Shown: positions 34 to 44,916 of the stretch, in pieces | Position numbering within the stretch: the stretch's first letter is position 1 | Layout: each line of letters begins with the position of its first letter | NCBI GenBank assembly: GCA_943328795.2 | Contig: CALQBK020000011.1 | Location: 1-52,982 of the forward strand | Length of the DNA: 52,982 bases | Reading direction: 5' to 3' | Source: Bifidobacterium breve | Lineage (GTDB): Bacteria > Myxococcota_A > UBA796 > SXON01 | Notes under the pieces: model-generated | The model's input: the letters and a program-made list of their open reading frames with translations, nothing else | What the model was told of the DNA's origin: nothing | Databases searched by the model: none | Made by a program: the position numbers and the translations under genes

Positions 34-77
34 ACAAAACGAGCGCGACCCGTTGGGGAGGGCTCCCCAACGGGTCG
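34..77 (-). terminator. Intrinsic terminator of the TPR/beta-barrel operon
   Basis: A perfect inverted repeat has 14-bp arms (46-59 and 64-77) around a 4-base loop. It lies 19 bases beyond the stop codon (96-98) of the last minus-strand gene. Reading on the minus strand, a short T-tract follows (A-run at 36-39 on the plus strand). Position and structure fit a Rho-independent terminator ending the five-gene minus-strand operon. Confidence 0.8.
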
Positions 78-95
78 GCGTGCGCGCCGGGTACG

Positions 96-1562
96 CTACG
101 GCGTAGGCGTAGGCGCGGGCTCGGTCGGCGCCGCCGGGGCAGCGGGCGCCTCGGGGGCCGCTGGCGCGGCACCTGCGGGGCAGGCCGTGGCCTTGCCGGC
201 GTCCAGCTGGGCCCGGGCGTCCACGATGAACGGCTCGACGTCGCCCGCGAGGGTGTAGTCCTTCTCGTCCAAGACCGGCTTGACCTGCTCCAAGGTCATC
301 TGGATGACCTCGACGATCCCCGGGTCGAGCGTGGGGCAATCCTTGAGGTCCTTCTCGATCGCGGCGACCTTCTCGCCCAGCTCCTTCAGCAGCTTGTCGC
401 CGCGCTCCTTGCGCTCACGCTCGGCATCCGCAGCGTCCTTGGCTGCCTTGACGCGCGCGTCCTCGGCCGCCTGCTCCTTCTTGATCGTCGTTTCGAGCTC
501 AAAGATCTCGTCCGTCGGGGACAGTTGGCCCGCCATGGCCTTCTTGAAGTCGTCGACGATCGCCTGCGCCTTCTTGAAGTCCTTCGCGTACTTCATGTTG
601 AAGGTGATCGCGTTTTTCACGACCGTGCGGTTCGTCGGGTTGTTCTTGAGCAGCGACTCGTACGCCTTCTGGGCGCCGTCGTTGTCCTTCATCCCGCGCA
701 AGGCGATGGCGTAGCCGAGCTGGCCATCCATGTTCCCCGGGTACTGCTTGACGACCGATTCGAACGCCGTGAGCGCGAGCTCGAAGTCACCGGAGTCTGC
801 GGCCAGGTAGCCGAGGTTCAAGTTGGCCTCGACGTTCGCCGGGTCGAGCTTGATGGCGGTCTTGAACTGCTCGATCGCCGCCGGGGCGTTCTTCTGGGCG
901 AGGTAGGTCACGCCCATGTTGTTGTAGATGCCCGGGTCGGTGTCCGACAGCGTCTTCGCCTTCTCTGCGCAGAGCAGGCTCATCTGGTAGTTCCCCTGCA
1001 CGTAGTACGCGCGGGAGAGGTTCCGGTAGGCGGACACGTTCTTCGGGTCGTGGCCGAGCACGTCTTGCGCGGTGGCGACGGACTCGTCGTACGCCTTGGC
1101 GCCGATGAGGGCGTCCGCGTAGTTGTTCTTCGCGACCAGGTCTTCGGGGTGCGTATCCACGTAGCCCTTGTAGATGGTGGTCGCCTCGGACGCCTTGTTC
1201 CCGAGGACGAGGACGTTCCCGAGGTTGAACAACGCTTCCGAGTAGTCCGGCTTGAGGTCGAGCGCCTTCTTGTAGTACTGCTCGGCCTTCGCGTAGTCGC
1301 CGGTGCGTTCGGCGGCCCAGCCGGCGTTGAACCAGGCCTTCGTGAAGGTCGCGTCCTGCGTGGTCGCCGCCTCGAACAAGGTCAGCGCGCCGGCGTAGTT
1401 CGCGGCCTTGAGCTGGTCGACGCCCTGGGTGAACGCCTGCTTGGGGTTGACGGTGCTGCCGTCGACGACAGGGTCGACGATCTTGGGTTCGCCGCAGCCC
1501 GTCAACGCGACGGGGCCGAAGGCGGCGAGCAGGATCAGGAGGGAGGGGATGGTGCGATTCAT
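96..1562 (-). CDS. TPR-repeat lipoprotein, GltE-like (AglT-like)
   Basis: 488 residues. The N-terminus is a lipoprotein signal with an LTGC lipobox, the modified cysteine being residue 23. From about residue 40 to 330 there are consecutive tetratricopeptide repeats, recognisable by W-x-x-x-G-x-A, A-x-x-x-Y and K-A-L-x-L-x-P patterns. A charged coiled-coil-like segment (about 355-400) and an Ala/Pro-rich tail follow. TPR lipoproteins are usually scaffolds. In the myxobacterial Glt system, GltE (AglT) is a TPR lipoprotein of similar build that sits beside the larger TPR protein GltD, as this gene does. It is the last gene of the operon, 15 bases after the 1069-residue TPR gene and just before a terminator. 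TPR lipoprotein is certain from sequence; the Glt assignment is inference from architecture and order. Confidence 0.85.
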   Translation of the reverse strand: MNRTIPSLLILLAAFGPVALTGCGEPKIVDPVVDGSTVNPKQAFTQGVDQLKAANYAGALTLFEAATTQDATFTKAWFNAGWAAERTGDYAKAEQYYKKALDLKPDYSEALFNLGNVLVLGNKASEATTIYKGYVDTHPEDLVAKNNYADALIGAKAYDESVATAQDVLGHDPKNVSAYRNLSRAYYVQGNYQMSLLCAEKAKTLSDTDPGIYNNMGVTYLAQKNAPAAIEQFKTAIKLDPANVEANLNLGYLAADSGDFELALTAFESVVKQYPGNMDGQLGYAIALRGMKDNDGAQKAYESLLKNNPTNRTVVKNAITFNMKYAKDFKKAQAIVDDFKKAMAGQLSPTDEIFELETTIKKEQAAEDARVKAAKDAADAERERKERGDKLLKELGEKVAAIEKDLKDCPTLDPGIVEVIQMTLEQVKPVLDEKDYTLAGDVEPFIVDARAQLDAGKATACPAGAAPAAPEAPAAPAAPTEPAPTPTP

Positions 1563-1577
1563 AGTGGTTCCTTTGGC

Positions 1578-4500
1578 CTACGGCTCGGTCTCGAAGGACG
1601 CGGAGGTCACCGCCGGGGCGGTGAAGCGGTTCTGGGGCACGATCTCGTACAGGCCGGGGTACTCGAGCGGACGGAGCACGCCGAGCTGGCGCGTCGCGTA
1701 GGCCGTGTTGTCGTTGTACAAGTTGAGCTCGTAGGCCTTTTTCAGCGCCTCCGAGTAGGACGCGACGGCCTTCTCGATCTGCGGGAAGCCCTTGTCACCG
1801 ATCTGCGCGCTGTAGATCTCGCACTGGTCGGTGGTCAGGTAGCTCGGGCACTTCGAGTTGGTGAACGTGTCGGCCATGTCCTCGTAGACCTGGCCGAGCT
1901 TCACGAGCGACGCCAAGCCCCACTCGCCGGCGCCCGTGTTCAGGACGTCGGTGTAGGTCTTCTCGATCGCGACGAGGGCCTTCGCCTTCCCGATCAGCTG
2001 GTCCTGGTAGGTCTTGTCCTCCACCCTCTGGCTGACCTTGGACGTGGGCCCGTTGATGCGCATCACGGTGAACTTCTTGAACTCGGGCTCAGCCAAGATG
2101 AACTTGATCTGACCGACGTACTCGCGAGACAGCTGCTGGGTCTCCTGGGGCGCGGCGGTCTTGGACTTCTCGTAGAACGCGAGCGTCTCCTGCCAGTGCT
2201 TCGTGACGTTCGCGGACTGGCCGAGCTTGTCCATCAGCAAGCCGTACCGCAGGCGGGCGAACATGAGCTCGTCCAGCGCCGGAGGCGTGGGCGCGACGGC
2301 TCCGGGGGCCAACTTGGGGGCGGTCTTCGGCGGCGTGAAGAAGTTCAGGTAGATCTTCGCGGCTTCCGGGTACTTGCCCTGGTCCTCGTAGGTCTTCGCG
2401 ATGCCGAGCTGCAGCCCGTTCAGCCCGGGCTTGGTCGGGTACGCCAGCATGTAGGCCTGGTAGTCCTTGATGGACGTCTCCCACTGCCCAAGCGCGCCGC
2501 GGAACAGCGCGGCCGAGTAGATCGCGTCAGCGGAGCCTGGGTGCGCCTTGTCCAGCGTGAACAGCTTCTCGTACCAGCTCGCGGCGTCCGCGAAGTCGGC
2601 CTCGGACTCGTAGTCGAACCCGAGCGCAGCCACCTGGTCCTTGTAGTACTTGGACTTGGGGAACTTGTTGATGAGCTCGAGCCGCAGGGGGATGCCCTCG
2701 GTCGCGCGACCGAGGTCGTGCAGGTAGACCGTCGCGTTGTTGAGCGCCAGATCGGCGTTCGAGGACTGCGGGAACTCCTTGTAGAAGGCCTGGTAGTCCG
2801 CCGCGCCCTTGGTCTTGTCGCTGGTCTTCTTGAAGTTGATCTCGATCAGCTTGAGCGACGCGTTCTCGTAGATCCCGTAGACGTCCTTCTTGAACTCGGC
2901 GGACCCGAGCCCGACCTGGTCGTAGTACAGCTTGGCGTTCGACTTCAGGTTGTCCCAGTCCTCGACCAGGTTGAAGTCGTCCAAGATCAAGTTCGCGGCT
3001 TGCTCGGCCTCCTTCGAGGACGGGTCCATCTTGATGACGACGTTGAACCGGTCCGACGCTTCCTTGAAGTGGTTCCTGCCGTTGAGCAGGTAAGCCGACT
3101 TGTAGATGATGTTCCGGACCTTGTCGCTCGTCGGGAACAGCTGGGCGTACTGGTCAAGCGCCTTGAGCGACTTGCCTTCCCACTCGGTGAGGGGCTGCTC
3201 AGCCTTGCTGCCCGGGTCGGGCCCGCCGGCCGAGACGGTCTTCTTCTCCTTCTTGATCATCTCGTCTGCGGCGAAGATCGCGGACGATGCGCAGAACTCG
3301 GAGTGCTGGCCCTTCCCGTCGATCGCGACGACGGCCATGTACTGCTCGTACGCCTCGTCGAACTTCTTGACCTTGTACAAGAGCTCGGCGAACGAGTACC
3401 GCATCTCGTAGGTGTACTGGCCCGTGGGAAACTCTTGCAGGTAGGTGCGGTACGCCTGCTCGGCGAGGCCGTAGACCTTGGTCGCGCCGGCGCCCGTGCC
3501 GATCTTCTTCGCCTCGTTGTGGTAGTTCGTGGCCACCGTCCGGAGGGCCTTCTCGATCATCTCGCCAGCGCCCTTGATGGCGTCCTGGTTGGACGCGTTC
3601 GCGCGTGCCCACGAGGAGGTCTTGCCGTAGGTCGTGCGGAGGCGATCGATCTCTTGGAGGGTCTCCTCCTTCTTGCCCATCTTGGTGTAGGCGGTGATGA
3701 TCTCGTTCTGGAAGTCAGCCGAGACGGGGGCAGTCGGCGCGTCCGTGATGAGCCGGCGGTACATCTCGATCGCCTGCTCGAACTTGCCCTGCTCGACGTA
3801 GGTGCCGGCGAGCTTCTTGAGGAGCTCGGGGATCATCTGCTGCTTGCCGATCTGCTTGAAGTAGGCGATGGCCTCGTCCATGTCGCCGCCGTCGGCGAAG
3901 AAGCGGACGAGGTCCTTTAGGGCCTCCTCTTGCAGCTGGATGTTGCTCTTCCCGCCGGAGCTCGAGTCGGAGTAGCTGACGACCGTCTTCATCGTGCTGA
4001 TGGCGGTGCCGTACTCCTGGAGGTTGTAGTAGCACCACGCGAGCTTGTACATCGCGAACGGGTACTTCTCGTGGGTCTTGTTGCTCGCGGCCTTGCGGTA
4101 GGCGAGCATCGCCTTGTTCGCGTCTTCCTTCTCCTCGAAGTAGTACTCGCCGATCAGCACGTAGGCGTCGGTGATGTACGTGGAGTCAGGGTACTGCTTC
4201 ACGAGGCGCGTGAACTCCTGCGCCGCGAGGTCGAGCTGCTGCGTGTCGTTGTACGCGCTCGCGAGGAAGAACGTCGCTTCGTCGGCACGCGCGAACTGCG
4301 GGTAGTTCGTGAGGATCTGCTGGTAGAGCTTGATCGACCGGTCCTGCCACTGGCGGGAGCCCGTGGTGTACGTCTTGCAATCGACGCTGTCCGGCTGACC
4401 ACCCGCGTTGAAGACCTTGTCGATCTCGGCGTTACACGCCTTCATCTCGTCCAAGTACAGGTCGCGACCTTCGTCGAAGTACAGGTCCGAGAGGCGCAAG

Positions 4501-4787
4501 ATCAGCTCGGCCTTCTGGTCCGGCGGGCCCTGGAACTCCTTCAGGAGCGCCTTCAGCTGCTCGATGGACGCGAGCCGCGCCTCGTGCGCCTTGGCGCGGA
4601 GCTCGGCTGTCTGCTGGTCCTGCACCGAGAGGTCGGTGGCAGACAAGCGGCGGCGCTCGGTGTCCGCGGCGTGCGCGGGGTTGATCGGCGCGATCGCCAT
4701 CACCAACGCGAGCACAAAACCGAGGCGAGAGGCACGGCGGAGGAGGGCTGCCGTCGGGCTAAGGTCAGAAGGTACGGAGATGGGCAT
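1578..4787 (-). CDS. Large secreted TPR protein, GltD-like (AgmU-like)
   Basis: 1069 residues. The N-terminus has a positive region, a hydrophobic stretch (about 24-36) and a likely signal peptidase site after AHA near residue 40, so the protein is probably periplasmic. Most of the remainder is TPR or TPR-like helical repeat, with repeated Y-P-x-S-x-x-x-x-A-x-x-x-x-G and A-x-x-x-Y motifs. No enzymatic domain is visible. Length, export and repeat content resemble GltD/AgmU of Myxococcus xanthus, a large TPR component of the gliding machinery. A GGAA Shine-Dalgarno lies 7 bases before the ATG. It follows the 627-residue TPR gene after a 95-base gap and is closely followed by the TPR lipoprotein. 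TPR identity is certain; the Glt-like role is inferred from the gene set. Confidence 0.85.
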   Translation of the reverse strand: MPISVPSDLSPTAALLRRASRLGFVLALVMAIAPINPAHAADTERRRLSATDLSVQDQQTAELRAKAHEARLASIEQLKALLKEFQGPPDQKAELILRLSDLYFDEGRDLYLDEMKACNAEIDKVFNAGGQPDSVDCKTYTTGSRQWQDRSIKLYQQILTNYPQFARADEATFFLASAYNDTQQLDLAAQEFTRLVKQYPDSTYITDAYVLIGEYYFEEKEDANKAMLAYRKAASNKTHEKYPFAMYKLAWCYYNLQEYGTAISTMKTVVSYSDSSSGGKSNIQLQEEALKDLVRFFADGGDMDEAIAYFKQIGKQQMIPELLKKLAGTYVEQGKFEQAIEMYRRLITDAPTAPVSADFQNEIITAYTKMGKKEETLQEIDRLRTTYGKTSSWARANASNQDAIKGAGEMIEKALRTVATNYHNEAKKIGTGAGATKVYGLAEQAYRTYLQEFPTGQYTYEMRYSFAELLYKVKKFDEAYEQYMAVVAIDGKGQHSEFCASSAIFAADEMIKKEKKTVSAGGPDPGSKAEQPLTEWEGKSLKALDQYAQLFPTSDKVRNIIYKSAYLLNGRNHFKEASDRFNVVIKMDPSSKEAEQAANLILDDFNLVEDWDNLKSNAKLYYDQVGLGSAEFKKDVYGIYENASLKLIEINFKKTSDKTKGAADYQAFYKEFPQSSNADLALNNATVYLHDLGRATEGIPLRLELINKFPKSKYYKDQVAALGFDYESEADFADAASWYEKLFTLDKAHPGSADAIYSAALFRGALGQWETSIKDYQAYMLAYPTKPGLNGLQLGIAKTYEDQGKYPEAAKIYLNFFTPPKTAPKLAPGAVAPTPPALDELMFARLRYGLLMDKLGQSANVTKHWQETLAFYEKSKTAAPQETQQLSREYVGQIKFILAEPEFKKFTVMRINGPTSKVSQRVEDKTYQDQLIGKAKALVAIEKTYTDVLNTGAGEWGLASLVKLGQVYEDMADTFTNSKCPSYLTTDQCEIYSAQIGDKGFPQIEKAVASYSEALKKAYELNLYNDNTAYATRQLGVLRPLEYPGLYEIVPQNRFTAPAVTSASFETEP

Positions 4788-4882
4788 CTTCGTTTCCGGG
4801 GGAATGCGGGGTGCGCTTGGCGCTTGGAACGGGGAGGTCGCCGCAAGCCGGCGATCTCCGCGGGGGACTGGCCGGGGTCGGC

Positions 4883-6766
4883 CTACTTGCAGTTGCCTTG
4901 CTCGGTATACCAGTAGTATCCGAGCTCGTCCTGCCAGAACTCACCGTTGAACGGCCAGAAGATCCGGTCGGGAGACGTCGCGAAGTCGATCTGGAACTCC
5001 TTGGAGGTGTCCTGGACGTCCTGCGCCGTGAGCTTGTACTGGTAGTCGCCGCGGATGGCGTCGGTCTTCTCGAAGTTGATGATCTGGGACTGCCCGAGCA
5101 GGCCGCCGAGCATCGTGGCGAGCCCGCTCATCTCCTTCAGCAGGTAGACGCCGGCGCGACGCTTCAAGCGGTCGCGATCCTCGGCGATGACCTTGTGCAG
5201 GTTCTCCCCGAGGCTGTCCTTCCACTGGCTCTTCTGCTCGTCGATGAGCTTCTCCTCGCTCTCCATCACCTGCAGGTGGCTCACGATGCCCGCGAGGTCC
5301 TGGTTGCGGAGCATCCGCACGAACGCGGACTTCGGGATGAGCGTCTTGTCGGGCTTGGCGCCGAAGTAGCGGTCGTACGCCTGGTCCGAGAGCTTGGAGT
5401 TCTCGCCCGTGTACTGCTTCAGGAAGTCCTTCATCTCCTCTTGCATCGGCTTGTACGTCGAGTCGAAGCTCGCGAGGGTCTTGTCGACCTCCTTGTACTC
5501 GCAGAGGTTGAAGAACGTCAGCGCGCGCAGGATCTGCGCCTCGGGGATGAACTCCTCCTTGTCGAAGAAGGGGCTGTTCACCGTGAGCATCTGCCCAAGC
5601 GTGCGGTTGACGTCCGACGTCACGAAGTCCGCCCAACCGCTCTCGAACTGGGCTTCGGCCCAGTAGCGGCTCTCGCGCGGGACGTTGTCGTACCAGGTGT
5701 TGGCCTCGGGGTACCGCTGGATGCTGTAGTAGATACGCGCGATGTTGAGCAGCGAGAGGTCGCGGAGGCGCTTGTTGGCCTCCTCCTCGACAGGGGTGCT
5801 CGCGTCAGGCGTGGACTTCACGACCTCGGTGAAGCTCTTGACGGCGGACCGCAGCTTCTCCTGCTTGTAGTAGATGACGCCCTCGAAGTACTTCGACTTC
5901 GAGTAGAGGTCGGACTTCTCCGACACCTGCGCGAAGCTCTTGCGCGCGTCGGTCAGCTTGTCCTGCTCGTACAAGCGGAGGCCGGCCAGGTAGTAGTACT
6001 GGTTGCGCGCGGAGGCGGGGAACTCCTCGGCGGGCACCTTCGCCACGATCTTGGCCAGGTCGGAGTCGTCGCCCGTGAACTTGGCGATAGTGACCAGCTT
6101 GGGCAGCGCCTTCGAGAAGTACGGGGTGCTCGGGCCTTTCTTGATGACCTCGGTGAAGTAGTACTGCGCCGAGTGGTACATCTGCAGGTCGTACAAGGAG
6201 CGCGCCAGGTAGTACTGGATCTTCGCTTCCTTGTCCGGGTACTGGTTGTCCTGGAGCATCTGGAAGAACGCGAGGCTCGCGGTCAGCGGCTTCTTGGCGT
6301 CGTACGCCTTGATCGCGCTATCGAGCTTCTCGGGGTCCTTGCCCGTCTCGTCCTCGTCCCCGCCCTTGTCTTCGAGCGTCTTGGCGGTCTGCTTGTCGCC
6401 GACCCCCTCGTCGCTGTCGAAGGAGTCGCCAGCCTTCGGCTTGGTGGTGACGGGGACGTCCGCCGGCTCGTCCTCTTCGGGCGGGGCGGCCATCATCGCC
6501 TTGGCGGCGACGATGACTTCGGCGGGCGCGCCCTTGTCCTGCAGGCACTTCACCTGCAGCGGCGTGAAGGTCTCGCCAGACCCCTGCACCGTCTGGACGA
6601 TGATCTCGGTGGGGACGGAGACGTCCACCATGTTCATCAGCTCGTCGCAGGACAGCGCGAACGCGGGGCGGCTGCCCAGCGCGAGCGTGAGCGACACGGC
6701 CACGGGCAACGCGTGACGAAGGGAAGGAAAGCGAGGTGCGGAGTTCGCGGGGGTGCTGGGTTTCAT
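4883..6766 (-). CDS. Secreted TPR-type protein, GltC/NfsC-like
   Basis: 627 residues. A signal peptide (cleavage probably after AFA near residue 37) is followed by a Cys-containing N-terminal domain and an acidic linker (about 95-150). TPR-like repeats occupy about 150-420: they carry Y-Y-L-A-R-S-L-Y, Y-Y-F-T-E-V and G-V-I-Y-Y-K-Q type helices. A conserved-looking C-terminus ends in a W-P-F-N-G-E-F-W-x-D-E-L-G-Y-Y block. Glt/Nfs operons contain a TPR protein of similar size (GltC/NfsC) next to two outer-membrane barrels, which is the arrangement here. The gene starts 10 bases after the stop of the preceding barrel gene. The family call rests on architecture and context, not on an alignment. 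Confidence 0.8.
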   Translation of the reverse strand: MKPSTPANSAPRFPSLRHALPVAVSLTLALGSRPAFALSCDELMNMVDVSVPTEIIVQTVQGSGETFTPLQVKCLQDKGAPAEVIVAAKAMMAAPPEEDEPADVPVTTKPKAGDSFDSDEGVGDKQTAKTLEDKGGDEDETGKDPEKLDSAIKAYDAKKPLTASLAFFQMLQDNQYPDKEAKIQYYLARSLYDLQMYHSAQYYFTEVIKKGPSTPYFSKALPKLVTIAKFTGDDSDLAKIVAKVPAEEFPASARNQYYYLAGLRLYEQDKLTDARKSFAQVSEKSDLYSKSKYFEGVIYYKQEKLRSAVKSFTEVVKSTPDASTPVEEEANKRLRDLSLLNIARIYYSIQRYPEANTWYDNVPRESRYWAEAQFESGWADFVTSDVNRTLGQMLTVNSPFFDKEEFIPEAQILRALTFFNLCEYKEVDKTLASFDSTYKPMQEEMKDFLKQYTGENSKLSDQAYDRYFGAKPDKTLIPKSAFVRMLRNQDLAGIVSHLQVMESEEKLIDEQKSQWKDSLGENLHKVIAEDRDRLKRRAGVYLLKEMSGLATMLGGLLGQSQIINFEKTDAIRGDYQYKLTAQDVQDTSKEFQIDFATSPDRIFWPFNGEFWQDELGYYWYTEQGNCK

Positions 6767-6776
6767 CGCCGTCAGC

Positions 6777-7676
6777 TCACTTCATGGAGGGGAAGAAGAA
6801 GGTCACGCCGCCCTGGAGGAGGAAGTTGTTCTTCATCTCCAGGGTGGTGCTGTTGATCGTCTCGATGTACGACATGGACTTGCCCTCGATGCGCGCGGCG
6901 ACGCTCTCGCCGAACGCGACGCGGGCCCCACCGGCGATGATCGTGGTGGGGTGCCATTCTTGGTCGCTGCCGACGAACGCGGGATCCCCGGGGTCGACCT
7001 GCAGGGCCTTGGGGTCGTCCGCCGTGTGGACCACGCCGAGGCCGAACGCGCCGTACATGTCGAACGCGATGATCTTGCGGCCGACGGCCGCCTTGCCGTA
7101 GATGGGGGAGAACGCGAGCGCCGCGGAGCCCATGGCGTCCAGCTTGGAGATGTCGGGGGAGACGCTGTTCTCGAGCAGCAGCTGCTTCGACAGCTTCTTC
7201 CAGTCCGGGTCGTTCTCGCCGCCGGAGCCGAGGATAGGCGAGTAAGCGAGCTGGATCTCCGCCGCGAAGATCTCGGTCACGTGGTAGTCGATCGTCGCGC
7301 CGATCACGTAGCGGTTCAAGAACGGGTCGTTCGTGACGAACCCGATCTCGGGGCCGACCTCGTAGCGCCCGATCTTCATGAAGTTCTTCTTCTGAATGAC
7401 CTTGATGATCCGCTTCTTGGCCTTCTTACCGGTGGCCTCCTCCGCCTTCTTGGGGTCGGCAGAGCCCGACTTCACGGCCTCCTTCTCGGACTTGACGGAG
7501 TCCTCGTCCTCCTCCGTGTCGTCGGACGCGGGGTCGTCATCAGCGAGCGCGTCGCTCGCCAGGTAGTGGAGGACGACGGGGGACGAATCGGTCGCCGAGT
7601 CCGCGGGTTCCGGCGACGAGGCCTGGGCGGGCAGCGCAGCGAGGGAGAGTGCGAGCAACATCATGGGGGTGGCCAC
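6777..7676 (-). CDS. Outer-membrane beta-barrel protein, GltA/GltB-like (second copy)
   Basis: 299 residues from the GTG at 7676; ATG codons at 7664 and 7661 are alternative starts. A hydrophobic export signal ends near ALPAQA. An Asp/Glu/Lys-rich, probably disordered segment (about 40-90) precedes a C-terminal barrel domain (about 92-299) with alternating hydrophobic strands and a terminal aromatic strand (FFFPS). The barrel begins with the VIQKKNF...RYEVGPEIG pattern, matched in the upstream gene by VIQNKFF...RFEIAPMIG, so the two are paralogues. This fits the myxobacterial outer-membrane beta-barrel family that includes GltA and GltB. It lies 7 bases after the first barrel gene. Fold assignment is fairly secure; function is inferred. 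Confidence 0.8.
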   Translation of the reverse strand: MATPMMLLALSLAALPAQASSPEPADSATDSSPVVLHYLASDALADDDPASDDTEEDEDSVKSEKEAVKSGSADPKKAEEATGKKAKKRIIKVIQKKNFMKIGRYEVGPEIGFVTNDPFLNRYVIGATIDYHVTEIFAAEIQLAYSPILGSGGENDPDWKKLSKQLLLENSVSPDISKLDAMGSAALAFSPIYGKAAVGRKIIAFDMYGAFGLGVVHTADDPKALQVDPGDPAFVGSDQEWHPTTIIAGGARVAFGESVAARIEGKSMSYIETINSTTLEMKNNFLLQGGVTFFFPSMK

Positions 7677-7683
7677 CGTCTGC

Positions 7684-8556
7684 TTAGAAGTTGGAGAGGC
7701 GCGGCTTCATCTTCGGCACGAAGATCGAAACGCCGGCGGTGGTGATGAACGAGTTGTACAGCCGGCTGTTGAGCTCGACTGCCTGGCCTTGCGCGTCCTT
7801 GTTCCCGTAGTCGGGCTCCTTCGCGACGTAGAGGAGGCTGCGGGCGTCGATCTTCAACGCGATGCCTTGCGTGAGGAAGAAGTCGAAGCCGACGCCGAGG
7901 TTGATTGCAACGTTCGCGGCGGTGGTGGGGTCCACCGCGCTCGTGGCGGGGTGGCTCGGGTCGTTCCCGTTGATGTACTCGGGGTTGACGATCGCGTAGT
8001 CCTTCGTGATCAGCAGCAGGCCGAGGCCCGCGGTGCCGTAGAAGTCGAAGTTCAACACGCCTTCGCCGAGCAGGTTGATCTTGCCGTACACCGGTGCGAG
8101 GCGCGCATCGAACACGGCGCCGAGCTGGATACGGTCGAGCGGCTGCTTGAAGGTGGTTTGGTTGTCACCCTCGTACGCGATGCCGACGAGCGTCTGCGTG
8201 AGGTTCTTGATGCCGGCGTCCCCGGTGTTCGGGCCGTAGAGGATGCTGCCCTCCGCCGCGAAGGTCTCCGAGAAGTGGTAGGCGAGGAACGCCCCGCCGA
8301 CCGGGCTCGACACGAACGAGTTGTTCGGCACGTACCCGATCATCGGCGCGATCTCGAACCGGTTCTGCTTGACGAAGAACTTGTTCTGGATGACCGAGAG
8401 CTGGGCTTTCTTGCCCTGGAGCTCGTCGAGCGCCTGCGTCGCGGGGTGTGCGAAGGCTTTGCCCGGCAGCAGCGCAGCGGCAAGCCCCAGCATCGGAGCC
8501 AAAGAGGTGAGCAGGGTGAGAGGGGAGCGTCGTTTCAGGCGGGCCAGCATGTTCAT
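7684..8556 (-). CDS. Outer-membrane beta-barrel protein, GltA/GltB-like (first copy)
   Basis: 290 residues from the ATG at 8556, chosen because a GGAG Shine-Dalgarno sits 9 bases upstream; the reading frame extends to 8586 without support. A typical signal peptide (Arg/Lys-rich n-region, hydrophobic core, cleavage after AFA) is followed by a short helix and a barrel of about 230 residues. Conserved family features are VIQNKFF, RFEIAPMIGYVPNNSF, the Y-H-F-S-E-T-F-A-A-E strand and a C-terminal strand ending in VSIFVPKMK. It is the first gene of the five-gene envelope operon and a paralogue of its downstream neighbour. Paired barrels next to three TPR proteins is the hallmark arrangement of Glt/Nfs loci. 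Confidence 0.82.
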   Translation of the reverse strand: MNMLARLKRRSPLTLLTSLAPMLGLAAALLPGKAFAHPATQALDELQGKKAQLSVIQNKFFVKQNRFEIAPMIGYVPNNSFVSSPVGGAFLAYHFSETFAAEGSILYGPNTGDAGIKNLTQTLVGIAYEGDNQTTFKQPLDRIQLGAVFDARLAPVYGKINLLGEGVLNFDFYGTAGLGLLLITKDYAIVNPEYINGNDPSHPATSAVDPTTAANVAINLGVGFDFFLTQGIALKIDARSLLYVAKEPDYGNKDAQGQAVELNSRLYNSFITTAGVSIFVPKMKPRLSNF

Positions 8557-8632: not shown

Positions 8633-9070
8633 GTGGTTAGTCATGCGTTCGTGACGCTCTCTTTGCCCGCCCTGGTTCTCGTCGGCGCTGCAGCAGCCGC
8701 TGCCCCCGTCGAGGTCGTGGTGCCCAGCGCTCCCCCCACGGAGGGAGAGGCCGTGCCGTTCACCGTCCGCGAGTCCGTCGAGGGCGCTGTGTTCGTCGAC
8801 GGGTGCTCGCCCGTGGAGGTCGAGCAGAAGACCACGGGGAAGTGGCTGCCCACGGCCGTGAAGGTGTGCGATTCGCCGGTGCCGGCGACCCGGGTGGACG
8901 GGGAGCTGGCGTTCTCGGTCCCGAGCCCCTCGGCAGGGTCGGGCACCTACCGGGTGTTGCTCACGTGGGGGACCGACTGCGCCGTTGGGTTCCCGCTGCC
9001 TACGGCGGCCTGCAAGGAGCTCGGGAGCGTGACTTCGGCGCCGTTCGTGGTCGCGCCGAAGTCGAAGTAG
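8633..9070 (+). CDS. Small secreted protein of unknown function
   Basis: 145 residues from the GTG at 8633; a second in-frame GTG at 8651 would give a tidier signal peptide. The N-terminus is a hydrophobic export signal rich in Ala. The mature part looks all-beta, with alternating Val/Thr/Ser and four Cys that could form two disulphides. It resembles an Ig-like or fibronectin-like domain, but I do not recognise the family. The gene is divergent from the barrel operon (76-base gap) and convergent with the downstream lipoprotein; the two stop codons abut (9068-9070 and 9071-9073), leaving no room for a terminator. It could be a periplasmic or surface accessory of either flanking operon. Confidence 0.7.
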   Translation: MVSHAFVTLSLPALVLVGAAAAAAPVEVVVPSAPPTEGEAVPFTVRESVEGAVFVDGCSPVEVEQKTTGKWLPTAVKVCDSPVPATRVDGELAFSVPSPSAGSGTYRVLLTWGTDCAVGFPLPTAACKELGSVTSAPFVVAPKSK

Positions 9071-9979
9071 CTACTCGACCACGAGCTTTTGCTCGATCCA
9101 CGCCATGCCGCCGCGCCGGTCGCGCACGACCACCCACAGGGACTGCTCCGTGAGCGTGGCGTCCGCCGCCACCGTGTAGTCGACGGCGGTGTACGGCCAC
9201 AGCGTGTTCGATTGGTCGAAGCTGCCCTCCTGCAGGTACCAGCTGAAGTAGGGCTCCTCGGTGCGGTCCTCGGAGACCCCGGTGTCGTTCACGTAGACGT
9301 AGTCCTCGAGCGCATCGTCGGCGAGCTCACAGGAGATCGCGTAGGTCTGCCCCCGCGTGAGCGTCACCGTCGCGCCGGGCGTGATCGCGACATCGTCGAT
9401 CGTGAGCCCCAGCACCGTGGGGTTGTGGTTCGGCGTGGTCGCGAGGCTCACGGGCACGCGCTTGTAGGCCACCTCGATGTCCTCGATCGCCGTGTCCAGG
9501 GTCCCCGTGTCGCCCTCCACCGTCGGGATGGCGGTGAGGGTGACGATCGCGGTGGTGCCTTCGAGCTTCTCGTCGTCCGTGAGCGCGTCCAAGTAGTCGT
9601 CGGGGACGGTCCAAGCCGGGGACAAGAAGGGCTCGGCGCCGATCAGCCCGGCGGCTTGCAATTCGGCGTAGAGCGCCGCGAGCTCGTCCGGCGTCAGGTC
9701 GGAGGTGTCCTGCAAGGAGGCGAGCAGGTCCTCGTCGGGAGAGCACCCGTAGCTGCCGGCGTCTGTGCACGTGAACCAGGTGGTGAGCGCCACGGGCGCG
9801 ACGGGGGAGACCACGAGGGAGGTGAAGGTCACCTGGTCACCAGGTTGGGGCTCCGCGGGCTCGGCGGCTACCGCGAGGATCCGCAGCCTGTCGATCTGGT
9901 AGGACTGCGAGAGCCCGAGGCCGTCGCACCCCAGCAGGAGCGCGATCAGGGGGGCGAACGGGACGGTCCTAGAACTCAA
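9071..9979 (-). CDS. Lipoprotein of unknown function, last gene of the TonB operon
   Basis: 302 residues from a TTG start at 9979. The start was chosen because it yields a standard lipoprotein signal with an LLLGC lipobox (Cys at residue 18) and has GAGG 6 bases upstream; the frame stays open to 10087 but that part has no export signal. The mature protein is Thr/Asp-rich and probably beta-sandwich in character, with Cys pairs near TTWFTCTDAGSYGCSP. The start overlaps the last 11 bases of the TonB-dependent receptor gene, implying translational coupling. It may act at the outer membrane with the receptor, as partner lipoproteins often do; no specific ligand can be inferred. Confidence 0.75.
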   Translation of the reverse strand: MSSRTVPFAPLIALLLGCDGLGLSQSYQIDRLRILAVAAEPAEPQPGDQVTFTSLVVSPVAPVALTTWFTCTDAGSYGCSPDEDLLASLQDTSDLTPDELAALYAELQAAGLIGAEPFLSPAWTVPDDYLDALTDDEKLEGTTAIVTLTAIPTVEGDTGTLDTAIEDIEVAYKRVPVSLATTPNHNPTVLGLTIDDVAITPGATVTLTRGQTYAISCELADDALEDYVYVNDTGVSEDRTEEPYFSWYLQEGSFDQSNTLWPYTAVDYTVAADATLTEQSLWVVVRDRRGGMAWIEQKLVVE

Positions 9980-12650
9980 ACTTCGCCTCGAACCCAGGGC
10001 TTGGGATGAACGGCAGCGACTTGATGTACGCGGTCTCGGTGTAATCGTAGTTGTAGATCTGGAATTCCGGGTTTGTTCCATGGACAACGTTGATCAGGTC
10101 GAGGAACAGGTCGAGGCTCCACGCCTTGAAGGTAAAGACCTTGTCAATCCGTGCGCTCGCGGACCAATACGGGGGGAGCCGGTCGGAGTTGTATGGCGCG
10201 GTTGAGTACCCGGAGTACGTGTCCTGGTCCACGTCGTACACGCCCAGGTTGTACGGGGTCGTCGGGTTGCCCGTCGTGTACTGGAACCGGGCCGACACCT
10301 CGACCTGCCAGGGGAGCTTGTACCCGCCGACGCCGACCAGGTTGTGCGTCTGGTCATAGTCGTAGTTGTACCAGTCGTCCTCGGGCTCGTCCCTGCGCTC
10401 GCTTTTTGAGAGCGTGTACGAGATCCACCCGAAGAAGTGCCCGATCGGGTCATGCCGGACGATCACCTCGACGCCGTACGCGCGCCCGACGCCGTCGTTG
10501 ACGAAGAACGCGTCGTCGAGGCTCTGGAAGTCGGGGTTGCCGACGATGAGGTGGGAGAAGCCCTTGTAGAAGCCCTCGATCTCACCGTGGACGGCCTGCC
10601 CGAAGTCCTGCTCCCAACCGAGCGCCCCGGAGATGCAGCGCTCGGAGACGAGGTCGACGAACGAGTCGTCGGTCCGGTACATCTGGTAGGGCTGGGGCGG
10701 CTGGTGGTAGAGGCCTACCGAGCCCTTGAGGCGGGTCTTCGGGGTAAGGCTGAACTTGGTCGCGAGCCGAGGGTCGAGGGCGGCGGTCCGCAGCTGTCCG
10801 GGGATCCAGGCCACGGTCCCACGGATCCCGGGGGTGATGAGCCAACGGTCGGCGTCCTTGAGCGGGCGGATGTTGAAGAACAGGTACGGGTCGGGCCCCC
10901 AGCCGGTCTGGTCGTCCTTCAAGATGAACGGCTCGCGCTCGGCCAGCGGGTCGGTCTCGGCGAGGCTCGACGGGTCGAACGGCAGCTCCACCTCGAACGG
11001 GGACCACCCGCCGACGAAGTCGAGCCCGGGCACCACCTTGAGGTGATCGCTGACCGTCCAGGGCAGCTCCGCGCGCACCTCGGCCAACCACTGGGTCTGG
11101 TAGAGCCGCCACGAGTCGCCGACGACCAAGCTCGCGTAGTCGCGGCCGAACGTCGGCACGAAGCGGAAGGACAGCTTGTCGTTGAACGGGTGCACCCAGG
11201 TCAACAAGATGCGGTGGGTCGAGTAGCTCGTGCCGAAGCTGCCCTGGGTGTCCTGGTCGGTGCCCTGGGCCGTCCCCTCGGGGCTGGAGGCGGTCAGGTC
11301 GTCCTGGAAGCCGAACACCAGCACGCTGAAGCTGTCGCGGTGCTCCAGCAGCTCGTACTTGACCTGGAAGTCGTACCAGACCGGGGAGATCGTGTAGCCC
11401 TGGTTGCCCGTGTACTTCAGCACCGGGTCCATCAACAGGTCGATGTAGGACCGGCGGCCGGCGAGGCCGATGGCGTGCTGCTTGTGCTTGCCGAAGCGGC
11501 CCTGGATCATGGCGCCCGAGTCGAGGGCGTCGGTCTTCCACGTGATCTTGTTGCGATCCGGCCACTTGCTCACGGTCGTGACGTCCACCACGCCGCCCAT
11601 GCCGCGGCCGTACTGGACGCCGAAGCCGCCCGGCAGGTAGTCCACGGCGCTGACGAGCCCCGGGTTGATGACCGACTCGAAGCCCCCGAGGTGGTAGATG
11701 TAGGGGATGCGGATGCCGTCGACGTAGACGCCCGAGTCCTCGGGGTTCGACCCGCGGATGATCAGGAGCCCGGTGCCGAACGGCGAACGCGCCGCGCCCG
11801 GTAGGCTCTGCACGACGCGGATCGGGTCCCCGAACGTGCCGGGGATGCGCTTGATCGTGTCCATCGAGATCGTGCGCTGCGTGACCTCGTTCTTGTCCTT
11901 GTCGTAGTAGGCGTACAGCGTGTCGTCGGCCGGCACGGTGCGCATCCACAGCTTCGCTTCGACGGCTTGGCCGGCCGTGAGCGTGATCTCCTGGGTGACG
12001 GTGCCGAGCGCGGGGTCGGACGCGCGGAGGACCCACGTGCCGTCGGGGACGCCACGCAGGGCGAACGCGCCGGCGTCGTCGGTCTCCGTGACCCAAGCGC
12101 CGTCCCGCGCGGCCTGCTTCTGCGCGTCGTCCGCGGTGGCGGTCGCGAGGATGCTGACCGCGACGCGGGGGAGCAGGCGGCGTGAGCCCATCTCCCGCAG
12201 CGTGCCGCTCACGTTGATCCCGGCCTCGACGGGCGCGGCCGCTTCGGGGGGCGGCTCGGCGGGCTTGAAGACGAAGCCGTAGTCGAACTGGATGATGACG
12301 GGGACGGGCCCCGAGGGGTCCTCGGCCGGTGAGAACACGAACTGCCGAGCGGCGTCGATAGCAGCTTGGTCGAAGCCGTTGCCCACCGGCTCCTCGACCG
12401 TCACGTTCGTGACTTTTCCCGTCGCGTCGATCTCGATGTCCAGCAGGACGTGCGCCTCGAGCCCTGCTGCCTGGGCCTCGGGCGGGTAAGGCGCGTCCAC
12501 GAAGCTCACCAGGACGGGATCCTTGGTGAGCGGGGGCGGGTCGGCCGGCGGGGCTGGGGCCGCCGCTGGGTCGGTAGGCGGGCCATCGCTGGCGAGCGCG
12601 GGGTGGGCGAGCGCGAGCGCGAGCAGCGCGGAGGGGACGAGGAGGGTCAC
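9969..12650 (-). CDS. TonB-dependent outer-membrane receptor with N-terminal TonB-like domain
   Basis: 893 residues from the GTG at 12650, which overlaps the tonB stop in a GTGA junction and starts a clean signal peptide. The frame extends to 12935 only as an out-of-frame shadow of tonB. Domain order: signal peptide (1-20), Pro-rich linker, a domain resembling the TonB C-terminal fold (about 47-130, Y-P-P-E-A...V-L-L-D-I-x-I-D-A-T-G-K-V...A-A-R-Q-F-V-F-S-P-A), a carboxypeptidase-regulatory-like beta domain (about 143-235), a plug domain with RGSNPEDSGVYVDGIRIP, then a beta-barrel ending in an F-E-F strand. Substrate is not evident; there is no siderophore or cobalamin gene nearby. It lies in an operon with ExbB, ExbD and TonB, so it is energised uptake or surface remodelling. 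Confidence 0.9.
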   Translation of the reverse strand: MTLLVPSALLALALAHPALASDGPPTDPAAAPAPPADPPPLTKDPVLVSFVDAPYPPEAQAAGLEAHVLLDIEIDATGKVTNVTVEEPVGNGFDQAAIDAARQFVFSPAEDPSGPVPVIIQFDYGFVFKPAEPPPEAAAPVEAGINVSGTLREMGSRRLLPRVAVSILATATADDAQKQAARDGAWVTETDDAGAFALRGVPDGTWVLRASDPALGTVTQEITLTAGQAVEAKLWMRTVPADDTLYAYYDKDKNEVTQRTISMDTIKRIPGTFGDPIRVVQSLPGAARSPFGTGLLIIRGSNPEDSGVYVDGIRIPYIYHLGGFESVINPGLVSAVDYLPGGFGVQYGRGMGGVVDVTTVSKWPDRNKITWKTDALDSGAMIQGRFGKHKQHAIGLAGRRSYIDLLMDPVLKYTGNQGYTISPVWYDFQVKYELLEHRDSFSVLVFGFQDDLTASSPEGTAQGTDQDTQGSFGTSYSTHRILLTWVHPFNDKLSFRFVPTFGRDYASLVVGDSWRLYQTQWLAEVRAELPWTVSDHLKVVPGLDFVGGWSPFEVELPFDPSSLAETDPLAEREPFILKDDQTGWGPDPYLFFNIRPLKDADRWLITPGIRGTVAWIPGQLRTAALDPRLATKFSLTPKTRLKGSVGLYHQPPQPYQMYRTDDSFVDLVSERCISGALGWEQDFGQAVHGEIEGFYKGFSHLIVGNPDFQSLDDAFFVNDGVGRAYGVEVIVRHDPIGHFFGWISYTLSKSERRDEPEDDWYNYDYDQTHNLVGVGGYKLPWQVEVSARFQYTTGNPTTPYNLGVYDVDQDTYSGYSTAPYNSDRLPPYWSASARIDKVFTFKAWSLDLFLDLINVVHGTNPEFQIYNYDYTETAYIKSLPFIPSPGFEAKFEF

Positions 12651-13378
12651 GGGTTGGCCGTCACGGTGCAGTATTGCGGCATGCCGGTGACCGCGACGGG
12701 CACGCCATCCTGCATCGCGGGCTTGAACTTCGCTTGGCGCCAGGCGGCGATGCACGCCTCCTCGATGCCGTAGCCGAGCGGCTTCGAGATGACCTTTGCG
12801 CTCTGCACGGAGCCCTTGTCGTCGATGTCCAGCCGCACCTCCACGGTGCCCTCGACGTTGGCCTTCTGGGCCTCCGGGGGGGCCTGGAACAGCGGGCGCA
12901 GGCTCATCTTGGGCCGGGTGGTGACGGCCGCCCACGCGCGGGGGCCGTTCGCCTCGTCGAGCGTCAAGCCCTTGCCGGTCGCCGCGACGTCTGTCGTGTT
13001 GCCGGCGCGGACGGAGAGCCCCGTGCCGCTGTTGGAGAAGCTGTTCGCCGACAGGCCCTGGACGCGGCGCGGCGGCGCGGGCGTCGCTGCGACGTCGGGC
13101 GGCGGAGGGGTAGGCACGGGCGGGATGTCCTTGAACTTGACGGGCTTCGGCTTCTCCTTCGGCGGCTCGGGCTTGGGCGGCTCAGCGGGAGGAGGCGGCG
13201 GCTCCGGGGCCTTCTGGACCTGCACCTGCACCCACTCGGCGGCCTTCTTCGCGGGCTCGGGGTTCACTGCGAAGAACAGCGCCAGCAACCCGTGGAACAC
13301 GATCGAGGCCACCCCCGCGCCGCTGCGCAGCGCCTGCTGCCAACGCGGCACGCTGTGGAAGGGCGAGATCGAGCTCAC
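12647..13378 (-). CDS. tonB: TonB energy transducer
   Basis: 243 residues. A short cytoplasmic N-terminus is followed by one membrane helix (about 20-38) and a Pro/Lys/Glu-rich periplasmic spacer (about 52-110, PEPPPPP and KPKPVKF runs). A C-terminal TonB fold (about 165-243) carries V-E-G-T-V-E-V-R-L-D-I-D-D-K-G-S-V. TonB conveys proton-motive-force energy from ExbB/ExbD to outer-membrane receptors. Here it is encoded between exbD (4-base gap) and the receptor (4-base overlap), so the four proteins are expected to work together. The C-terminal domain holds two Cys near the end (EACIAAW and QYCTV), which might form a disulphide; this is uncommon but not diagnostic. Confidence 0.9.
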   Translation of the reverse strand: MSSISPFHSVPRWQQALRSGAGVASIVFHGLLALFFAVNPEPAKKAAEWVQVQVQKAPEPPPPPAEPPKPEPPKEKPKPVKFKDIPPVPTPPPPDVAATPAPPRRVQGLSANSFSNSGTGLSVRAGNTTDVAATGKGLTLDEANGPRAWAAVTTRPKMSLRPLFQAPPEAQKANVEGTVEVRLDIDDKGSVQSAKVISKPLGYGIEEACIAAWRQAKFKPAMQDGVPVAVTGMPQYCTVTANP

Positions 13379-13382
13379 GCAG

Positions 13383-13817
13383 TCACCCGGCGCTGGGGAC
13401 GGCGACTTCGGCCGGGTCGATGTTGATCGCGAACTTGGTGACGCCGAGGCCCTTCACGAGGTCGATGATGTGCGTCACGTCGCCGTGGCGCGCGTCCTTG
13501 TCTCCCGAGATCAGGCAGACGACGTTCTTGTCCTTCTTGAACTCCGCCGCCACGCGCTCGCGCAGCGCGGGCTCGCTGATCTCTTCGCCGTCGAGCATCA
13601 AGCGCCCGTCGGCCGCGACGCTGATGCCAAGCGAGGTTGGCTCCACGTTCTCCCCAGTGGTCGAGTCCGGCAGGTCGATCTTGATCGCCGGCTTCACGAT
13701 GTACGTCGCTGTCACCATGAAGATGATGAGCACGACGAGCACGATGTCCACGAGCGGGACGATGTTGATGTCGGTGATGGGCTCATCCCCCCCGCCGCGG
13801 AGCTTTCCTCCCGCCAT
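13383..13817 (-). CDS. exbD: ExbD/TolR-family proton-channel subunit
   Basis: 144 residues. A short cytoplasmic tail is followed by a single membrane helix (about 19-40) that contains the family's essential Asp (D24 in PLVDIVLVVL), preceded by the ITDINIVPLVD signature. The rest is the periplasmic ExbD/TolR domain. It forms the ion channel with ExbB and energises TonB. Its ATG follows the exbB stop with no intervening base, and tonB starts 4 bases after its stop. A relationship to the gliding motor subunits AglQ/AglS is possible since these are the same family, but there is a single copy and a tonB follows, so ordinary TonB energisation is the better reading. Confidence 0.92.
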   Translation of the reverse strand: MAGGKLRGGGDEPITDINIVPLVDIVLVVLIIFMVTATYIVKPAIKIDLPDSTTGENVEPTSLGISVAADGRLMLDGEEISEPALRERVAAEFKKDKNVVCLISGDKDARHGDVTHIIDLVKGLGVTKFAINIDPAEVAVPSAG

Positions 13818-14462
13818 TCAGGCCCCCGTCGCCTGCAGCCGCGCAAGGACGAGCTGCCCCATGCTCTCGGTGCGCGAGCAGATGCCCTTGATCTGGCTCT
13901 GCAACAGGTTGTAGAGCACGACGGCGGGGATCGCGACGGCGAGGCCCATCGCTGTCGACACCAGCGCTTCGGAGATGCCCGCCATGACGGCGCCCGCGTT
14001 CTCACCCGCCGCGCCGCCGGTGGTGAGGGCGAGATCGTGGAACGCCTTGATGATGCCGAGCACCGTCCCGAACAGGCCGACGAAGGGCACGGACGAGGCC
14101 ACGGTGCCGACGATCAGCACGCCGCGCTCCAGCCGGCCCCGCTCGAACTGCAGCGTGCCGACCATCGCGGACTCGGCGGCGTCGACCTGCCCGCCGGTCG
14201 CCACCGCGAGCCCGGCGCGGATCACGCGGGCCTCGAGCCCCTTCATCGAGTCGAGCGCCTTCTCCAGCGCCGCCCGGTCCCCGCCGGTCAAGAAGCTGCC
14301 GAGCGCGCCCTCGAACGCGCCGCTCGGCGAGCGGTTGAGCACGAAGTACAGCGCTCGCTCGATCGTGATCGCGACGCACAGCACGGACAAGCCGACCATC
14401 AACCACAACACCCAGCCGGCGCCCAGGAGCGCGAACTGGGACATCTTCTGCTCGAGCAACAC
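13818..14462 (-). CDS. exbB: ExbB/TolQ/MotA-family proton-channel subunit
   Basis: 214 residues from the GTG at 14462, supported by GGAG 6 bases upstream. Three membrane segments are visible: about 15-36, and the two conserved helices of the MotA/TolQ/ExbB domain (V-G-T-V-A-S-S-V-P-F-V-G-L-F-G-T-V-L-G and A-L-V-S-T-A-M-G-L-A-V-A-I-P-A-V). ExbB forms the pentameric scaffold around ExbD that uses the proton-motive force. It is the first gene of the minus-strand TonB operon. The upstream intergenic region holds two inverted repeats that may control it together with the divergent gene at 14624. Confidence 0.92.
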   Translation of the reverse strand: MLLEQKMSQFALLGAGWVLWLMVGLSVLCVAITIERALYFVLNRSPSGAFEGALGSFLTGGDRAALEKALDSMKGLEARVIRAGLAVATGGQVDAAESAMVGTLQFERGRLERGVLIVGTVASSVPFVGLFGTVLGIIKAFHDLALTTGGAAGENAGAVMAGISEALVSTAMGLAVAIPAVVLYNLLQSQIKGICSRTESMGQLVLARLQATGA

Positions 14463-44823: not shown

Positions 44824-44916
44824 AGGGACCTCGGGTGGCCGCCAGAGGTGCAAGGTGCATGCCGGTCTAGGGCTTGCCAGGTCAACGATGCGACCTGCTG
44901 AATTGCCGGTATGGAC

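What the first reader, a model, noticed from the sequence alone, without database searches (positions are those of the whole stretch)
34..8556. Compact Glt/Nfs-like envelope operon: two barrels, three TPR proteins
Seen: five consecutive minus-strand genes with short gaps encode two paralogous outer-membrane barrels, two secreted TPR proteins (627 and 1069 residues) and a TPR lipoprotein, closed by a terminator. Known: Myxococcus Glt (gliding) and Nfs (spore coat) systems use GltA/GltB barrels, GltC, GltD and the lipoprotein GltE, but in M. xanthus these are split over several loci. Inference: here the outer-membrane and periplasmic half forms one locus without the GltG/GltJ-type inner-membrane proteins in view, possibly an ancestral or repurposed version.
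Basis: partly seen in the sequence, partly recalled or inferred. Interest (0 to 1): 0.72.

Follow-up and report, generated by a model that had tools for sequence, protein, structure and literature searches.

The report
Truncated Nfs/Glt-type operon beside Ton genes
The five genes are the first part of a known kind of bacterial cell-surface transport machine (related to the gliding and spore-coat machinery of myxobacteria), cut off by the end of the assembled contig; the main new point is that many uncultured relatives keep it next to a second energised membrane system.

Summary
The five genes are real and are homologues, in order, of NfsA-E/GltA-E: two TIGR04565 barrels, a near full-length GltC relative, a D-type TPR protein and a GltE-type TPR lipoprotein. 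The "missing inner-membrane half" is an assembly effect. The window is a whole contig (C11) ending 45 bases past the hairpin stem. A same-genus locus (L088) runs on through two small F-family genes into a GltG-like FHA protein, and in the window's own genome that protein begins at the start of contig C17. Relatives show A-B-C-D-E-F-G-H, the order of a Myxococcus nfs-type cluster. The genome also holds a probable AglRQS-type motor on C45. Directly upstream, same strand, lie ExbB-ExbD-TonB, a TonB-dependent transporter and a lipoprotein. These five adjoin A-B-C in 21 of 27 named relatives with at least 8.2 kb upstream and in 0 of 41 GltC loci outside the group, 30 of them that long. In a Myxococcus the Ton module exists unlinked. 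Verdict: a distinct lineage of a known machine; the Ton linkage is the new feature, and its function is unproven, since synteny also keeps an L3 ribosomal gene nearby.

The parts
7684..8556 (-). Barrel A (GltA/NfsA-type outer-membrane protein)
   Evidence: TIGR04565 93 bits, cut-off 60; present in 38 of 39 named relatives L088-L126, the other contig starting inside C
6777..7676 (-). Barrel B (GltB/NfsB-type): about 100 residues (signal peptide and charged stretch) before an OmpA-like 8-strand barrel
   Evidence: TIGR04565 79 bits; AlphaFold mean pLDDT 67, barrel blocks mostly 75-93, loops near 60; top seven PDB fold matches OmpA
4883..6766 (-). C: GltC/NfsC homologue, secreted TPR protein with conserved WPFNGEFWQDELGYY-type C-terminus
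   Evidence: NF033756 301 bits over 49-619/622, E 1.8e-89, below equivalog cut-off 450; alignment A1
1578..4787 (-). D: GltD/NfsD-type large secreted TPR protein
   Evidence: TPR families; best NCBIfam match is the general TPR model tol_pal_ybgF, 122 bits; HMM of its relatives scores a Myxococcus NfsD-type protein 632 bits; tree
96..1562 (-). E: GltE/NfsE-type TPR lipoprotein
   Evidence: NF033758 95 bits, cut-off 225, next model 89 bits; lipobox LTGC by eye
46..77 (-). Terminator-like hairpin after E; does not end the locus
   Evidence: continuation
8633..9070 (+). Small secreted divergent gene between the two halves, often conserved in relatives
   Evidence: family 11 in 18 of 55 loci, some of them repeats; 'div' hits; no Pfam match
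9071..9964 (-). IgL lipoprotein (start codon approximate), mostly beta predicted fold, motif VVVRDRRGGMAW
   Evidence: alignment A4, AlphaFold mean pLDDT 86; no Pfam or NCBIfam match
9969..12668 (-). TonB-dependent transporter with N-terminal TonB_C-like domain and CarboxypepD_reg (start uncertain)
   Evidence: PF03544, PF13620, PF07715; 33% identity over 896 columns to a Myxococcus transporter
12647..13378 (-). TonB
   Evidence: PF03544 over cut-off; weak AgmX/PglI tail match, 22 bits against cut-off 40
13383..13817 (-). ExbD
   Evidence: PF02472; membrane Asp in PLVDIVLVV
13818..14462 (-). ExbB
   Evidence: PF01618; Ton-type clade apart from AglR-type

Best explanation
The finding is the 5' part of an Nfs/Glt-type trans-envelope operon, A-B-C-D-E-(F)-G, whose 3' part is on another contig. 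Shown: homology of the parts, gene order, continuation onto C17, and a probable AglRQS-type motor gene set in the same genome. Inferred from Myxococcus: the proton-driven AglRQS motor engages the FHA/TonB-tail protein G in the inner membrane. G reaches through the peptidoglycan to the periplasmic TPR proteins C, D and E and the barrels A and B, and drags the outer-membrane complex along the surface, moving a polymer or a surface contact. The neighbouring ExbB-ExbD-TonB-transporter-lipoprotein module most likely energises its own transporter, as Ton systems do. Its linkage across many relatives suggests, but does not show, that the two work on the same surface material.
For: Profiles: TIGR04565 twice, GltC and GltE homology; CglF 56 bits (cut-off 90), GltG 329 bits (650) and CglE 102 bits, over its cut-off of 70, in relative L093; GltG 312 bits on own contig C17. 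Continuation: L088 197-14645 aligns with window 14502-112 (83%), L088 15733-17567 with C17 1-1835 (90%). Same A-H order in Myxococcus sp. CA023 L186. F in 32 of 32, G in 28 of 31, H in 22 of 26 named relatives with enough sequence past E, out of 33 with E. AglRQS candidate: a Myxococcus triple of 245/162/194 aa, the sizes in PMC3169522 Table 1; its ExbB subunit groups 100/98 with that of own contig C45.
Against: No equivalog cut-off for GltC, GltE or GltG is reached. D has no Glt-specific model hit. No H was seen in same-genus L088 and L089, and F of the window's own genome would lie in the unassembled gap. GltJ was met only in its C-terminal tail; GltI and GltK were not sought. The ExbB tree carries a long-branch warning. 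Function rests wholly on Myxococcus; the host's lifestyle is unknown.
Confidence: 0.75

Rival explanations
1. The outer-membrane/periplasmic A-E part is driven by the adjacent ExbB-ExbD-TonB, not by AglRQS and G: a Ton-powered Glt/Nfs machine.
For: Linkage: 21 of 27 loci with 8.2 kb upstream, 0 of 41 outside; also class-mates L225, L226, L229. Three of 31 loci (L107, L110, L114) keep the five Ton genes, A-F and H but have no G between F and H. PMC5349195 (passages) notes that GltG/GltJ are TonB-like and GltA/B have possible TonB boxes.
Against: G is kept in 28 of 31 loci. TonB has its own transporter in the module. The divergent gene at 8633-9070 splits the two halves. L099, L103 and L115 have A-E, and L125 A-D, without Ton genes in the roughly 10 kb upstream fetched. 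I saw no conserved TonB box in A or B (by eye).
Confidence: 0.15
2. Ton module and Nfs/Glt operon are mere neighbours kept together by slow gene-order decay.
For: A ribosomal L3 gene is also a recurrent neighbour downstream (family 14, 12 of 55 loci, many too short to show it) and is unlikely to be functionally linked. The Ton module is unlinked in a Myxococcus (L220). Six of 27 relatives lack all or part of it.
Against: The linkage holds where C is only 37-40% identical (L121, L123), and conservation falls off upstream of ExbB, where the commonest families occur in 8 of 55 loci.
Confidence: 0.35
3. The operon is a true nfs orthologue (spore coat) rather than a separate lineage.
For: Same A-H order as L186; D tree puts the group with NfsD and one Bdellovibrio copy, 88/94; an L3-like gene flanks both, on different sides.
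Against: G tree puts it beside two gut-bacterium rows (95/92), not with NfsG; C tree leaves it an own clade; the C profile score is nearer GltC (301 bits) than that of NfsC (210 bits).
Confidence: 0.25

Closest known systems
Nfs system of Myxococcus xanthus (nfsA-H; spore coat)
   Same: Gene content and order A-B-C-D-E-F-G-H in relatives, compared with the nfs-type cluster of Myxococcus sp. CA023: two barrels, three TPR proteins, FHA/TonB-tail protein, CglE-type protein
   Different: Own lineage in the C, D and G trees; Ton module upstream; in the window's genus an extra tail protein after G, and no H seen in L088 and L089
Agl-Glt gliding machinery (gltA-K, aglRQS)
   Same: Homologous A-G parts; a probable AglRQS-type triple elsewhere in the genome
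   Different: Glt is split into clusters in M. xanthus (PMC3169522; PMC3858216); GltJ not found beyond its tail domain; equivalog cut-offs not reached
Ton module of Myxococcus sp. CA023 (L220), possibly the MXAN_0820/0821 cluster (TonB length 266 aa fits the fragment end in PMC6434023; inference; a second similar module, L221, is cut by its contig)
   Same: ExbB-ExbD-TonB-transporter-lipoprotein order; transporter 33% identical over 896 columns
   Different: No glt or nfs family gene in the 18 kb fetched; its lipoprotein matches weakly (48 bits)
Core complex GltC,D,E,G + AglRQS in Gammaproteobacteria and Geobacter (PMC3169522, sections 7, 11, 12)
   Same: Compact grouping of C, D, E, G
   Different: Those carry AglRQS in the cluster and lack barrels A and B, by that paper

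Membership tests
Glt/Nfs superfamily | Two OMP_myx_plus barrels | tested here: met
   TIGR04565 93 and 79 bits against cut-off 60
Glt/Nfs superfamily | GltC-type protein, near full length | tested here: met
   NF033756 positions 49-619 of 622, 301 bits
Glt/Nfs superfamily | GltD/NfsD-type protein | tested here: met
   No Glt-specific model among the hits (best: tol_pal_ybgF); HMM of the group scores NfsD-type 632-650 bits and the tree groups them at 88/94
GltC equivalog (gliding) | NF033756 over curated cut-off 450 | tested here: not met
   301 bits; the Myxococcus gltC scores 1092
GltE equivalog | NF033758 over cut-off 225 | tested here: not met
   95 bits; Myxococcus NfsE-type scores 122
Glt/Nfs superfamily | GltG/NfsG-type FHA + TonB-tail protein | tested here: met
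   C17:3-1790, FHA and NF033760 312 bits, collinear with L088; equivalog cut-off 650 not reached, nor by the Myxococcus NfsG-type (336)
Glt/Nfs superfamily | F and H genes | tested here: inconclusive
   F in 32 of 32 and H in 22 of 26 relatives, but the window genome has a gap at F and H is not seen in same-genus L088 and L089
Agl-Glt | AglRQS motor in the genome | tested here: met
   ExbB subunit of the C45 triple groups 100/98 with that of the Myxococcus triple of AglRQS sizes
Agl-Glt | GltJ | tested here: inconclusive
   Only C-terminal tail matches, 26-34 bits, in 4 of 7 tail-domain proteins scanned out of 12 tail matches; one (C34) has a zinc-ribbon-like N-terminus by eye; MAG 86% complete
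Agl-Glt | GltI, GltK | not tested
   No search made
Nfs | Phylogenetic position with Nfs | tested here: inconclusive
   D tree 88/94 with NfsD; C and G trees do not support it
Glt or Nfs | Gliding or spore-coat function | not testable with these tools
   Needs experiments
Ton system (upstream module) | ExbB, ExbD with membrane Asp, TonB, plug-bearing transporter | tested here: met
   PF01618, PF02472, PF03544, PF07715; Asp in PLVDIVLVV

The most novel reading that the evidence does not exclude
In one uncultured class of Myxococcota an Nfs/Glt-type outer-membrane machine has been joined to a dedicated ExbB-ExbD-TonB-transporter module. The two act as one surface apparatus: the Ton transporter exports or takes up the material that the A-H complex moves, or TonB itself drives the barrels in the lineages whose locus lacks G.
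Probability: 0.2. Interest if true: 0.7.

Novelty: new variant of a known kind. Interest (0 to 1): 0.38.

Why it matters
In the papers I saw, Agl-Glt/Nfs machines are studied by experiment in Myxococcus, and PMC3858216 (section 20, read) says that other motor associations are conceivable. A recurrent pairing of such an operon with a complete Ton system, in most of the tested relatives, is a concrete case in which that can be tested. It also extends the nfs-type operon to uncultured Myxococcota, and warns that 'missing' parts in MAG windows may be contig ends.

Tried and rejected
Rejected: that the A-E locus lacks its inner-membrane half. Rejected: that the compact layout is new (PMC3858216; L186; L128, L130 and L149 also carry barrel-C-D-E-F-G runs). 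Tried: PDB sequence search with barrel B (no match) and with C (only CpoB, E 0.004); neither informative. A look by eye for a TonB box in the A and B N-termini found nothing conserved. The ExbB tree carries a long-branch warning. GltJ search by tail domain was inconclusive. Naming the lineage: titles of the group's records mostly say Myxococcota, Myxococcales, Deltaproteobacteria or Proteobacteria; I did not place it in a named order. The fold search of the IgL model was never run.

L165 and L185, and L128 and L193, are also the same places. Score thresholds were set by me.
Full report
Observation. The window is the complete contig C11 (52,982 bases) of a 4.79 Mb, 298-contig, 86%-complete genome, which I take as Myxococcota from its relatives. 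Five minus-strand ORFs lie at the stated coordinates with gaps of 7, 10, 95 and 15 nt. The hairpin at 77-46 has 14 pairs and a T-rich tail.

Identity of the five proteins. Both barrels exceed the cut-off of TIGR04565. A model of barrel B (mean pLDDT 67; barrel blocks mostly 75-93, loops near 60) has eight strands, and its best seven PDB fold matches are OmpA structures, with TM-scores of 0.3-0.4 by the whole query. C matches the GltC equivalog model over nearly its whole length (301 bits, E 1.8e-89; cut-off 450), including a strongly conserved WPFNGEFWQDELG-type C-terminus. E matches the GltE model best (95 bits; cut-off 225), only a little ahead of another TPR model (89). D has only general TPR matches, the best being tol_pal_ybgF at 122 bits (cut-off 90), but an HMM of its relatives scores the D protein of a Myxococcus nfs-type cluster at 632 bits. 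So C and E are homologues, and by NCBI's own cut-offs not equivalogs, of the Myxococcus proteins. Relatives of GltC are common: 228 of 282 genomes sampled from the phylum matched, 1 of 282 over the cut-off.

The missing half. A same-genus locus on one contig, L088, aligns with the window over 14.5 kb (83%), then runs past the point where the window ends. 1.1 kb further on it aligns with the first base of contig C17 of the window's own genome (90%). The stretch between carries two small F-family genes and the start of a 612-residue FHA protein. C17 opens inside that protein, which has an FHA domain, an AgmX/PglI tail and 312 bits to GltG, followed by a second tail protein of 441 aa. In many other relatives the order is E, F, G, H; in L093 these match CglF (56 bits, cut-off 90), GltG (329, cut-off 650) and CglE (102, over its cut-off of 70). 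Among 33 named relatives with E, F is present in 32 of 32 with 700 bp beyond E, G in 28 of 31 with 3 kb, H in 22 of 26 with 4.5 kb; 20 have all three. H was not seen in the same-genus L088 and L089, nor in L099 and L117. A hairpin follows E in same-genus L047 too, and F and G lie beyond it, so the hairpin does not close the locus.

Comparison with Myxococcus. In Myxococcus sp. CA023 I found gltB-gltA-gltC (L185; C scores 1092 bits against NF033756) and a separate nfs-type run A-B-C-D-E-F-G-H (L186). PMC3858216 (passages) states that nfsA-H form one cluster while gltA-C and gltD-H are two. The window layout is therefore the nfs layout. The GltC tree (45 rows) makes the window's group its own clade (98/99) with an unresolved position. 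The D tree puts it with NfsD and a Bdellovibrio copy at 88/94. The G tree puts it beside two gut-bacterium rows at 95/92 and not with NfsG. I conclude that it is a separate lineage; whether it is nearer Nfs or Glt is undecided.

Motor. The genome has ten ExbB-type and fourteen ExbD-type matches, including four ExbB-ExbD-ExbD triples (C45, C89, C112, C193). In Myxococcus sp. CA023 one triple has 245, 162 and 194 residues, the AglR, AglQ and AglS sizes in PMC3169522 Table 1; its ExbB groups with that of C45 at 100/98. So an AglRQS-type motor is probably present. Further GltC-type clusters of the group lie near their own ExbB gene in some relatives: the second in G127 and G087 but not within the stretches of G048, G165 and G029 that I fetched; the third in all five. 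The window's ExbB belongs to a different, Ton-type clade (13 rows, 99/100) that holds two Myxococcus sequences next to single ExbD genes; the tool warns of long branches.

The Ton neighbour. Immediately upstream on the same strand are ExbB, ExbD, TonB, a TonB-dependent transporter and a lipoprotein. Of the 39, 27 have at least 8.2 kb upstream of C, and 21 of these 27 have all five Ton genes in the same order (in three of the 21 the locus ends before D or E). L088, with 8.0 kb, has them too. L098 and L111 have only the transporter and lipoprotein; L099, L103, L115 and L125 have none. Of the other 41 GltC loci (L127-L167; 30 with 8.2 kb upstream) none has any (score thresholds set by me; in the looser best-family list the only trace is a 22-bit transporter match in L163). 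The block is also in class-mates L225, L226 and L229; L228, the same contig as L125, lacks it. In Myxococcus sp. CA023 the same five-gene module exists unlinked (L220), its lipoprotein matching weakly (48 bits). Its TonB of 266 aa fits MXAN_0820, whose neighbour MXAN_0821 could not be deleted (PMC6434023, passages); that identification is an inference from length and order, and a second similar module (L221) is cut by its contig.

How far linkage can be pushed. Upstream of ExbB gene order is little conserved (commonest families in 8 of 55 loci), but downstream a ribosomal L3 gene is also a recurrent neighbour (12 of 55 loci, many of which do not reach that far), so linkage alone does not prove joint function. 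An often conserved small gene on the other strand (8633-9070) separates the two halves, so they are probably separate transcription units. Three loci with enough sequence (L107, L110, L114) have F directly followed by H without G; L115 looks the same but has less downstream sequence. Whether G lies elsewhere in those genomes was not tested. This is the only hint that something other than G might drive the complex in some lineages.

Mechanism. From Myxococcus (PMC3858216 and PMC5349195, passages; PMC3169522, sections 6, 7, 11, 12): AglR contacts GltG and NfsG, whose TonB-like tails are thought to reach the outer membrane and move barrels and cargo along the surface. I infer the same for the C45 motor, C17 G and window A-E. 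Nothing here shows movement, cargo or lifestyle.

Literature on the linkage. Searches listed no paper whose title or abstract start reports a Ton module joined to a Glt/Nfs operon; two searches listed 8 of 131 and 10 of 17. I did not read the listed papers through; PMC4488436 was seen as abstract and outline, PMC13104615 and PMC3986340 as passages.

Noticed in passing
window 36089-43236 (-): Omp85/TamA-type protein with POTRA domains next to a TamB protein, with a subtilase gene (43276-44853) just upstream: an outer-membrane assembly locus on the same contig.
   Followed up: no
window 8633-9070 (+): Small secreted gene of unknown family, divergent from barrel A and convergent with the lipoprotein, kept at this place in 18 of 55 loci, some repeats, and in class-mates.
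   Followed up: partly
L186 14652-15326 and L093 20898-21551: A ribosomal L3-like gene flanks the nfs-type cluster both in Myxococcus and in the window's group, on different sides.
   Followed up: partly
L201 2017-3342 (G000:C17), L047 779-2095, L088 17585-19126: Window's genus: a second protein with a GltG-type tail follows G; the C17 copy has the tail but no FHA match.
   Followed up: partly
L107, L110, L114, L115: F is followed directly by H with no GltG/NfsG-type gene between.
   Followed up: no
L090, L114: Records titled Klebsiella pneumoniae MAG carry this locus and look mislabelled; L090 has the contig length of G179 from the window's own family.
   Followed up: no
L072 (G000:C231) and L073 (G000:C117): Two further GltC-type genes in the genome, both on short contigs; C117 has a C-D pair, C231 a barrel and a C-type gene at the contig end.
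   Followed up: partly
L149, L151, L152, L153, L156, L157: Compact barrel-C-D-E clusters also in bacteria whose records point to rumen or gut, Spirochaetales or UBP6.
   Followed up: no
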